A stretch of 64,000 nt of DNA. Source: Planktothricoides raciborskii GIHE-MW2. Lineage in GTDB: Bacteria > Cyanobacteriota > Cyanobacteriia > Cyanobacteriales > Laspinemataceae. The stretch lies in the NCBI RefSeq assembly GCF_040564635.1, contig NZ_CP159837.1, positions 3,893,001-3,957,000 of the forward strand, read 5' to 3'. The position numbers were made by a program, and so were the translations under genes. Under the pieces are notes generated by a model. It did not search any database. It saw only the letters and a list, made by a program, of their open reading frames with translations, and was not told where the DNA came from. Below are positions 14,281-21,564 of this stretch, in pieces (the stretch's first letter is position 1; the number at the start of each line of letters is the position of its first letter).

Positions 14281-14687
14281 GGAAAGAGTAAGTCATAAGC
14301 CGGGTTCTGTTCTCCAAAAGTGCCAAGCACTTTCGAGGGCGGTTATCTATCTGGGACGCTTGTCACCAAACGCCTCTTGCGGTTCCTCATATCGGAACTG
14401 GTAAAAGACCAACCATAGTTCCATCCACCTTGCTCCCAACCGGGGTTTACCTAGCCAGCGCCTCTCGACGCTGCTGGTGCGCTCTTACCGCACCGTTGCA
14501 CCCTTACCAATTAGTAATCAGTTATCAGCCCAAGGCTAAAAGCTAATTGCTAATTGGCGGTATCTTTCTGTGGCACTATCCTCACGGTCGCCCGCACTGG
14601 GCGTTACCCAGCAAGTTTGGTCTTTCGGGAGCCCGGACTTTCCTCAGACAGGAAACCTGTCCGCAACCGCCTACCCTTACTCTTTCC
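14281..14687 (-). ncRNA. rnpB: RNase P RNA (type A)
   Basis: Catalytic RNA of RNase P, which matures tRNA 5' ends. On the minus strand the 5' part reads GGAAAGAGTAAGGG and pairs with the 3' end CTTACTCTTTCC (helix P1). The universally conserved segments GAGGAAAGTCCGGGCTCC (14628-14645) and CAGAAAGATACCGCC (near 14560) are present, as is the 3' GAACCCGGCTTATGACTTACT (14284-14305) including the tRNA-CCA-binding type GGGTTC-region. A repeat-like insertion (AATTAGTAATCAGTTATCAG ... CTAATTGCTAATTGG, 14508-14557) occupies the position of helix P12, where filamentous cyanobacteria carry short tandem repeats. Ends are set by P1 pairing and are approximate. Confidence 0.96.
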
Positions 14688-20877: not shown

Positions 20878-20965
20878 CTTCACCGGATTTATTAAGTTTT
20901 AATTAAATTTAGCCCGAAGCTGATTGACATTTATTCCCATAATTGTAACAATAAATACAGACAAA

Positions 20966-21057
20966 GCAACGTTCATCTCGGATAAAGACCTCCTGGAGAA
21001 TTTTCCCGGAGTCATCAGGTAGAGACGGAAGTAGGGATGATCCCGAAGGAACGCGCC
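20966..21057 (+). promoter_or_regulatory. Glutamine riboswitch (glnA RNA motif)
   Basis: The conserved core of the glutamine-binding glnA RNA class is visible: CGTTC (20970-20974) pairing with GAACG (21049-21053) to form P1, the invariant GACGGAAGTAGG (21024-21035), and CCGAAGGAACGC (21043-21054), with GTAGG/CCG closing a small hairpin around GATGATC. An additional stem of about 45 nt lies between the 5' strand and the core. It sits 37 bp upstream of a DUF4278 gene and in the same orientation. In cyanobacteria such riboswitches control genes responding to nitrogen status (for example the glutamine synthetase inactivating factor IF17). Confidence 0.9.
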
Positions 21058-21093
21058 TCATTCAAAACGAACAAATTTTAAGAGGCGAAAACT

Positions 21094-21564
21094 ATGAAAC
21101 TCTGTTATCGCGGCGTTAGTTATGAATATACTCCCCCCACTTTAAAAATCACACTGGGGGAAGTGGTGGGAAAATATCGCGGTCTAGATGTGCGATTCGC
21201 GAAAGCGATCCGCTTTGCGGAATCGCGCACTCTAGCCACCATGCCTATGGAGCAACCAAGCTTTGAGTTGCAATATCGGGGAGTTCCCTATACAAGTGGC
21301 AGCAAAGTGGCGGCAACACAACCGGCACAGGTTGCCGCATCAGAACCCGTCAGCCTCCCAGCTTTGGATACCACAGAAAAAGCTCGTACCCTCATGGTGA
21401 AACAGTCGCGAGGAATTAAAAAGCGTCAACAGGCAATGCTCAGTCGTTTAGCGATGGAAGTCGGTTTAGGTAGTAATGTGGCGGATTATTGGAATCGCAT
21501 CCAAGGCAAAATTCATCCGACTTTTCGGATCAGCTATGACCGGAGTCATGTTGCTTTTAGTTAA
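21094..21564 (+). CDS. DUF4278 protein under glutamine riboswitch control
   Basis: A 156-residue cytosolic protein starting MKLCYRGVSYEY, the hallmark of DUF4278, with a second copy of the motif (FELQYRGVPYTSG) at about residue 58. The C-terminal 70 residues are basic and helical (KARTLMVKQSRGIKKRQQAMLSRL). RBS AGAGGCG is 9 bases upstream. The preceding glutamine riboswitch says that expression depends on glutamine, hence on nitrogen status. Between the two motifs about 14 extra residues (DVRFAKAIRFAESRT) are encoded by a palindromic repeat inserted in frame; family members normally continue directly through GKYRG to the tail of the first motif. Followed by a Rho-independent terminator. Biochemical function unknown. 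Confidence 0.9.
   Translation: MKLCYRGVSYEYTPPTLKITLGEVVGKYRGLDVRFAKAIRFAESRTLATMPMEQPSFELQYRGVPYTSGSKVAATQPAQVAASEPVSLPALDTTEKARTLMVKQSRGIKKRQQAMLSRLAMEVGLGSNVADYWNRIQGKIHPTFRISYDRSHVAFS
21184..21235. repeat. Palindromic repeat inserted in the DUF4278 coding sequence
   Basis: TCTAGATGTGCGATTCGCGA at the left is answered by TGCGGAATCGCGCACTCTAG at the right, around GCGATCCGC. The near-perfect inverted repeat (about 50 bp) keeps the reading frame. A similar CGCGAAGC-type palindrome is inserted in the AAA-like pseudogene at 39537-39567. Confidence 0.8.

What the first reader, a model, noticed from the sequence alone, without database searches (positions are those of the whole stretch)
20966..21564. 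Glutamine riboswitch in front of a DUF4278 gene
All conserved glnA-motif bases are visible, 37 bp before a protein of unknown function. This links DUF4278 to nitrogen-status control and makes it a candidate regulator or inhibitor in glutamine metabolism, comparable to the IF17 case.
Basis: partly seen in the sequence, partly recalled or inferred. Interest (0 to 1): 0.7.

Follow-up and report, generated by a model that had tools for sequence, protein, structure and literature searches.

The report
Glutamine-switched glutamine synthetase inhibitor gene
This is a cyanobacterial gene for a known protein brake on glutamine production (IF17), with an RNA switch in front of it that senses glutamine; the pairing is already known, but comparing genomes shows the same switch also stands before other small nitrogen-control proteins.

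Summary
A type 1 glutamine riboswitch (RF01739, 50.2 bits, cut-off 35) lies at 20968-21057, 36 bases before a 156-residue gene. That gene is not just DUF4278 of unknown function: its C-terminal part matches the glutamine synthetase inactivating factor model (NF052599, 90.1 bits, cut-off 70). It is gifB/IF17, and the riboswitch-gifB link is published, so this is a new member of a known kind.

The sequence supports a double lock. A perfect NtcA box (GTAN8TAC) covers the likely -10 element. An anti-Shine-Dalgarno hairpin (CGCCUC/GAGGCG) starts at the base after aptamer helix P1, and its pairing covaries over 142 riboswitch places, which fits translation switched ON by glutamine.

The survey adds something I did not find in the papers searched. 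The riboswitch also precedes mini-IF7 genes followed by pirA (12 of 14 such genes), DUF4278-PirA fusions (7 of 142) and small two-helix membrane proteins (25 of 142). DUF4278 is fused to relatives of that membrane module in genes without the aptamer core. DUF4278 therefore looks like a shared part of a glutamine-surplus response. The key 2018 paper (gky709) was not held and may list some of this.

The parts
20924..20929 (+). -35-like hexamer TTGACA
   Evidence: TTGACA, spacer 17, AACAAT, 10 of 12; such sites 2 found against 2.0 expected in shuffles, so weak alone
20947..20952 (+). -10-like hexamer AACAAT, inside the NtcA box
20945..20958 (+). NtcA-type box GTAACAATAAATAC (GTAN8TAC)
   Evidence: sequence; 72 of 142 riboswitches have such a box within 120 nt upstream against 2.3 (maximum 8) in 200 shuffles
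20968..21057 (+). type 1 glutamine riboswitch aptamer (RF01739); P1 = 20970-20974 with 21049-21053
   Evidence: helix P1 also in the fold
21054..21059 (+). anti-Shine-Dalgarno strand CGCCTC, first base directly after P1
   Evidence: fold; covariation
21082..21087 (+). Shine-Dalgarno region GAGGCG paired with 21054-21059 in the predicted OFF state
21094..21564 (+). gifB gene, IF17-type glutamine synthetase inactivating factor, 156 aa
21094..21291 (+). DUF4278 domain, residues 1-66
21192..21226 (+). 35-base palindromic repeat inside DUF4278, giving 9 extra residues against relatives
21367..21561 (+). IF7-like inhibitor domain, residues 92-156

Best explanation
The locus is a gifB gene. Its product is an IF17-type small protein that binds and shuts off type I glutamine synthetase when nitrogen is plentiful. 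Expression is locked twice. Under nitrogen shortage NtcA sits on its box over the -10 element and blocks transcription. When the mRNA is made but glutamine is low, CGCCUC directly after aptamer helix P1 pairs with the Shine-Dalgarno region GAGGCG and blocks ribosomes. When glutamine is high it binds the aptamer; the first base of the anti-SD strand is drawn into the long-range pair that ends P1 at the ligand site, the hairpin opens, IF17 is translated and the enzyme is inhibited. Shown here: aptamer, both protein domains, NtcA-type box, predicted anti-SD hairpin and its covariation, a type I glnA in the genome. Inferred: glutamine binding, ON direction, NtcA repression, GS inhibition (from the Synechocystis work), and the competition for the base after P1 (from the described aptamer structure; which base forms the long-range pair is recalled).
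For: RF01739 well above cut-off. DUF4278 and IF7 domain above curated cut-offs in one frame. The 3 riboswitches found in this genome each lie directly before a DUF4278 gene. NtcA-type box before 72 of 142 riboswitches against 2.3 (maximum 8) in 200 shuffles, other spacings 1 to 3; 24 of 31 in the DUF4278 plus full IF7 class. MFE and centroid folds hold the CGCCUC/GAGGCG hairpin. Tail-to-SD pairing is stronger within loci than between loci: -10.1 against -8.97 kcal/mol, 0 of 5000 permutations, 124 distinct pairs of 142 places. Among those 124: tail G with SD C 63, G-T 2, A-C 1, A-T 14, other states 44; collapsed to genus x class x state 50, 2, 1, 6 of 92. No terminator-like site between aptamer and ATG. 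Type I glnA present. ON direction and GS inhibition by IFs: PMC6316151 section 12, PMC11288750 passages.
Against: The whole leader folds no better than shuffled sequence (z 0.64, 152 of 200 shuffles at least as stable). The promoter-like match is no more than chance. The hairpin is 6 pairs; the genome's two other riboswitches pair more weakly (-6.5 and -9.6 against -12.3 kcal/mol), and 44 of 124 distinct pairs fall outside the four states of the covariation table. The covariation is not corrected by a tree, and A-T states lie mostly before non-DUF4278 genes (2 with DUF4278, 13 without). The second tandem riboswitch of this genome lacks an NtcA box. The palindrome adds 9 residues to DUF4278 and the predicted fold is poor (mean pLDDT 62), so an effect on the protein cannot be excluded. 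No expression or binding data for this strain.
Confidence: 0.88

Rival explanations
1. The riboswitch works at the level of transcription (termination or RNA decay), not translation.
For: Many riboswitches do so (recalled); transcription was not measured.
Against: No terminator-like site between aptamer and ATG; the SD-anti-SD pairing covaries. PMC6698751 (passages) calls the related glutamine-II switch likely translational because of its closeness to the start codon.
Confidence: 0.08
2. The main target of this protein is not glutamine synthetase: DUF4278 gives it another partner such as PII, and the IF7-like part is secondary.
For: DUF4278 occurs without any IF7 part (19 of 142) and with PirA (7 of 142).
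Against: The IF7 domain is complete and above the curated cut-off, and a type I glnA is present.
Confidence: 0.06
3. The gene is damaged: the palindromic insert in DUF4278 made the protein unstable and the locus is decaying.
For: A 35-base repeat with 8 copies at up to 3 mismatches in the genome adds 9 residues not seen in the other aligned relatives.
Against: Frame open; a sister genome keeps the insert at 90% protein identity and the riboswitch; an identical protein is in Planktothricoides sp. SR001. The insert falls in a low-confidence loop, residues 37-47. PMC6316151 says the N-terminal part is disposable for IF17 function but promotes stability.
Confidence: 0.05

Closest known systems
gifB / IF17 of Synechocystis sp. 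PCC 6803 (Sll1515) with its glutamine riboswitch
   Same: DUF4278 plus IF7-like domain, type 1 glutamine riboswitch in the leader, NtcA repression (PMC6316151; PMC7760959 passages)
   Different: Palindromic 9-residue insert in DUF4278; the P2 loop of this aptamer holds 42 bases where the Rfam consensus shows 6
gifB1 with riboswitch RNA94 in Limnospira indica PCC 8005
   Same: IF17-type gene directly after a glutamine riboswitch; four possible gifA genes reported there (PMC8400943 passages), and four gifA-like copies stand together here
   Different: Here the two other riboswitches precede short DUF4278 genes with the first half of an IF7 domain
IF7 / GifA (NF052599)
   Same: inhibitor domain of the window protein matches this model over 2-66 of 66
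   Different: IF7 stands alone without DUF4278; here it is the C-terminal part of a larger protein
[quoted passage not shown]
   Same: small nitrogen-excess protein (PMC8092223 passages); in part of the related loci it follows the riboswitch or is fused to DUF4278
   Different: The window gene has no PirA match

Membership tests
Type 1 glutamine riboswitch (RF01739) | covariance score above the curated threshold, full model | tested here: met
   50.2 bits against 35, model 1-53
Type 1 glutamine riboswitch (RF01739) | binds L-glutamine and switches expression ON | not testable with these tools
   needs in-line probing and a reporter
IF17 / GifB | N-terminal DUF4278 | tested here: met
   PF14105 71.8 bits, cut-off 25.3
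IF17 / GifB | complete C-terminal IF7-like inhibitor domain | tested here: met
   NF052599 90.1 bits, cut-off 70, model 2-66 of 66
IF17 / GifB | glutamine riboswitch in the 5' leader (as in Synechocystis; not universal: 42 of the 100 best-scoring DUF4278 matches have one within 200 nt) | tested here: met
IF17 / GifB | NtcA site over the promoter | tested here: met
   sequence only: GTAN8TAC at 20945-20958 over the -10-like hexamer; enrichment; binding not tested
IF17 / GifB | target enzyme, type I GlnA, in the same genome | tested here: met
   TIGR00653 684.9 bits at 4181173-4182570
IF17 / GifB | inhibits glutamine synthetase by direct binding | not testable with these tools
   needs purified proteins
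IF7 / GifA | stand-alone protein of about 65 residues without DUF4278 | tested here: not met
   156 aa with DUF4278; separate gifA-like copies lie at 868544-869520

The most novel reading that the evidence does not exclude
DUF4278 and the type 1 glutamine riboswitch are two parts of one glutamine-surplus brake system. The same effector modules, IF7 (stops glutamine synthetase), PirA (acts on PII and arginine synthesis) and a two-helix membrane protein of unknown target, recur under the riboswitch, or fused to DUF4278, or both. The N-terminally extended PirA proteins whose reality was left open in print include DUF4278-PirA fusions, some of them riboswitch-controlled, and in other genomes riboswitch, mini-IF7 and pirA stand in a row like an operon. 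The window gene is the IF7 branch of this system. On this reading DUF4278 is a general stability or docking module for these brakes.
Probability: 0.5. Interest if true: 0.65.

Novelty: new member of a known kind. Interest (0 to 1): 0.38.

Why it matters
The window gene adds one more riboswitch-controlled IF17 and a concrete, testable translational switch: an anti-SD strand that begins at the base after P1 and covaries with the SD. The wider pattern matters more. If the riboswitch also governs PirA and a small membrane protein, glutamine would restrain ammonium assimilation, arginine storage and perhaps a membrane process together. It would also give DUF4278 a role across several nitrogen brakes, and bear on the N-extended PirA proteins that PMC8092223 (passages) left open.

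Tried and rejected
Rejected: 'DUF4278 of unknown function' (NF052599 match); a transcriptional switch as first choice; a degenerate riboswitch before the own-genome DUF4278-PirA gene, gifA or pirA (no RF01739 among 9 matches up to E 5 in L007, L008, L144, L152). Led nowhere: solved structures by sequence (none up to E 1; 7 matches, best E 0.25, with a profile); structure prediction (mean pLDDT 62, pTM 0.25), so no fold search was run.

Weak points of the survey: 9 of the 142 RF01739 places score below the gathering cut-off and one of them (G204) lacks the GGAAGTA core and sits before an rmlD-like frame; all were kept in the counts. The module classes rest on profiles built from the same set, but the NCBIfam and Pfam tallies (75 and 7 of 142; 85 of 142) are independent; 75 equals the sum of my IF7 classes (31+29+14+1). 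Downstream genes were picked by a rule that prefers DUF4278-like starts; two were set by hand (G205, G293).

Literature: Klaehn 2018 (gky709 / PMC6212724) and Ames and Breaker 2011 (PMC3127080) are not held; nothing of them was read. DUF4278 occurs in 2 papers of the library; glutamine riboswitch with PirA and IF17 in 4. In the passages I saw of these four the riboswitch is named for gifB or only in the reference list.

Full report
Observation. RF01739 matches 20968-21057 with 50.2 bits, gathering score 35, E 5e-8 over the 64-kb window and 4227 families. The frame 21094-21564 follows after 36 bases. It matches DUF4278 over residues 1-66 and the curated NCBIfam model for GS inactivating factor over residues 92-156 at 90.1 bits, cut-off 70. 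An identical protein is found in Planktothricoides sp. SR001.

Anatomy. By sequence, a GTAN8TAC box at 20945-20958 covers the -10-like hexamer of a promoter-like match (TTGACA, 17, AACAAT), although such matches number 2 against 2.0 expected. The box is the stronger evidence: within 120 nt upstream of 142 riboswitches it occurs in 72, against a mean of 2.3 and a maximum of 8 in 200 dinucleotide shuffles, while spacings of 6, 7, 9 and 10 occur 1 to 3 times. It is frequent before DUF4278 with full IF7 (24 of 31), with half IF7 (25 of 29) and with PirA (7 of 7), rarer before the class with none of these modules (9 of 41), and absent before mini-IF7 genes (0 of 14).

Switch. MFE and centroid folds of 20960-21115 contain CGCCUC (21054-21059) paired with GAGGCG (21082-21087), although the leader as a whole folds no better than shuffles (z 0.64). 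Over 124 distinct tail and SD pairs from 142 places, pairing within a locus is stronger than in 5000 permutations between loci (-10.1 against -8.97 kcal/mol, none as strong). When the tail changes G to A the SD changes C to T: 63 G-C, 2 G-T, 1 A-C, 14 A-T of 124 (44 in other states); collapsed to genus, class and state 50, 2, 1, 6 of 92, with 5 genera holding both forms. This is not a tree-based test. PMC6698751 (passages) describes ligand contacts to the last P1 pair of the glutamine-I aptamer and a long-range pair that ends P1; that the base after P1 forms it is recalled, and that it is the first anti-SD base is my inference. The scheme fits the published ON direction (PMC6316151 section 12).

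Genome. The window's genome has 3 RF01739 matches and 5 DUF4278 matches. Besides the window gene, two riboswitches stand 512 bases apart, each before a gene of 105-106 aa with DUF4278 and the first half of the IF7 domain. The other two DUF4278 genes have no RF01739 match: a DUF4278-PirA fusion with an NtcA-type box 86 bases before the gene, and a fusion of an N-terminal membrane segment with DUF4278. Four IF7-type copies stand together at 868544-869520, one match with two stops inside. One type I glnA is present.

Survey. RF01739 was found in 58 of 291 genomes of the phylum and 31 of 39 relatives; together 142 distinct places in 77 genomes, 9 of them below the gathering cut-off. Pfam finds DUF4278 in 85 of the 142 chosen downstream frames; NCBIfam finds the IF7 model in 75 and PirA in 7. 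My classes: DUF4278 with full IF7 31, with half IF7 29, DUF4278 alone 19, DUF4278 with PirA tail 7, half IF7 without DUF4278 14, full IF7 without DUF4278 1, none 41. Of the 41, 25 belong to one two-helix membrane family, and 36 of 41 fall into recurrent groups of 29, 5 and 2. In the same 142 stretches 12 of the 14 mini-IF7 genes are followed on the same strand by a PirA-like frame; apart from the 7 fusions none of the other 121 is. Gaps are 13-230 nt, with no terminator found by a simple scan. Six of these PirA-like proteins were scanned and all six pass the PirA cut-off. Seen from the other side, 42 of the 100 best-scoring DUF4278 matches have a riboswitch within 200 nt upstream, and 13 of 106 PirA matches over about 50 bits have one within 700 nt. 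So most PirA genes, and 58 of those 100 DUF4278 matches, have none.

Membrane module. A profile of the 25 riboswitch-linked two-helix proteins finds 7 of 22 DUF4278-search frames tested (own L008 and 6 others) at 16.6-27.3 bits. The 22 were partly chosen for long frames, so 7 of 22 is not a rate. Of 4204 shuffled or reversed controls none of the scored ones exceeds 13.5 bits. None of these 7 genes shows the GGAAGTA core on its strand in the fetched stretch.

Insert. The 35-base palindrome at 21192-21226 has 8 copies with up to 3 mismatches in the genome and none in the reversed control. Of the aligned relatives only the sister genome (L163) shares the 9 extra residues. Seven of the 8 copies lie inside open frames of at least 90 codons, in several reading frames, which recalls the palindromic elements inserted in Rickettsia genes (recalled).

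Literature. Full section read: PMC6316151 section 12. Passages only: PMC6316151 elsewhere, PMC11288750, PMC9004378, PMC8092223, PMC7760959, PMC8400943, PMC9196836, PMC6698751, PMC2864571, PMC13362535. PMC8092223 says N-extended PirA versions exist in annotations, that false annotation cannot be excluded and that their function is elusive. [quoted passage not shown]

Verdict. The window finding is a real but ordinary riboswitch-controlled gifB. What goes beyond it is the module pattern around the riboswitch, which I hold at even odds as one coherent system.

Noticed in passing
L011, L017, L020, L024, L026, L030, L032, L036, L041, L042, L050, L091: Riboswitch, mini-IF7 gene of 45-56 aa, then a PirA-like gene on the same strand; 12 of 14 mini-IF7 places. 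The seven bases AGGATAA directly precede the aptamer in 12 of 12; meaning unknown.
   Followed up: partly
for example L049:1608-1811, L048:1265-1468, L093:1125-1349: A family of two-helix membrane proteins of about 60-80 aa directly after the riboswitch, 25 of 142 places; no Pfam or NCBIfam family name it as a group.
   Followed up: partly
L008 (own genome 4548821-4549006, minus strand); also L213-L218: Fusions of a related two-helix segment with DUF4278, without the aptamer core in the fetched stretch.
   Followed up: partly
L007 (own genome 3243243-3243662, minus strand): DUF4278-PirA fusion with an NtcA-type box but no RF01739 match.
   Followed up: partly
own genome 1382371-1383328 (L002, L003): Two riboswitch plus DUF4278/half-IF7 genes in tandem; only the first has an NtcA-type box.
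   Followed up: partly
own genome 868544-869520 (L144-L146, L148): Four gifA-like copies in a row, one match with two stops inside.
   Followed up: no
window 21192-21226 and 7 other genome places (L154-L161): Palindromic repeat that sits inside open frames of at least 90 codons in 7 of 8 copies, in several reading frames.
   Followed up: partly
L060, L071, L083, L084, L104; L065, L068; L029, L075, L088, L110: Further small proteins after the riboswitch: a group with an FDFDLWATKV-like stretch (5), a group of 93-94 aa (2) and one-helix proteins with PxLCWVL (4).
   Followed up: no
window 14281-14683 (minus strand): Bacterial RNase P RNA class A, ordinary.
   Followed up: no
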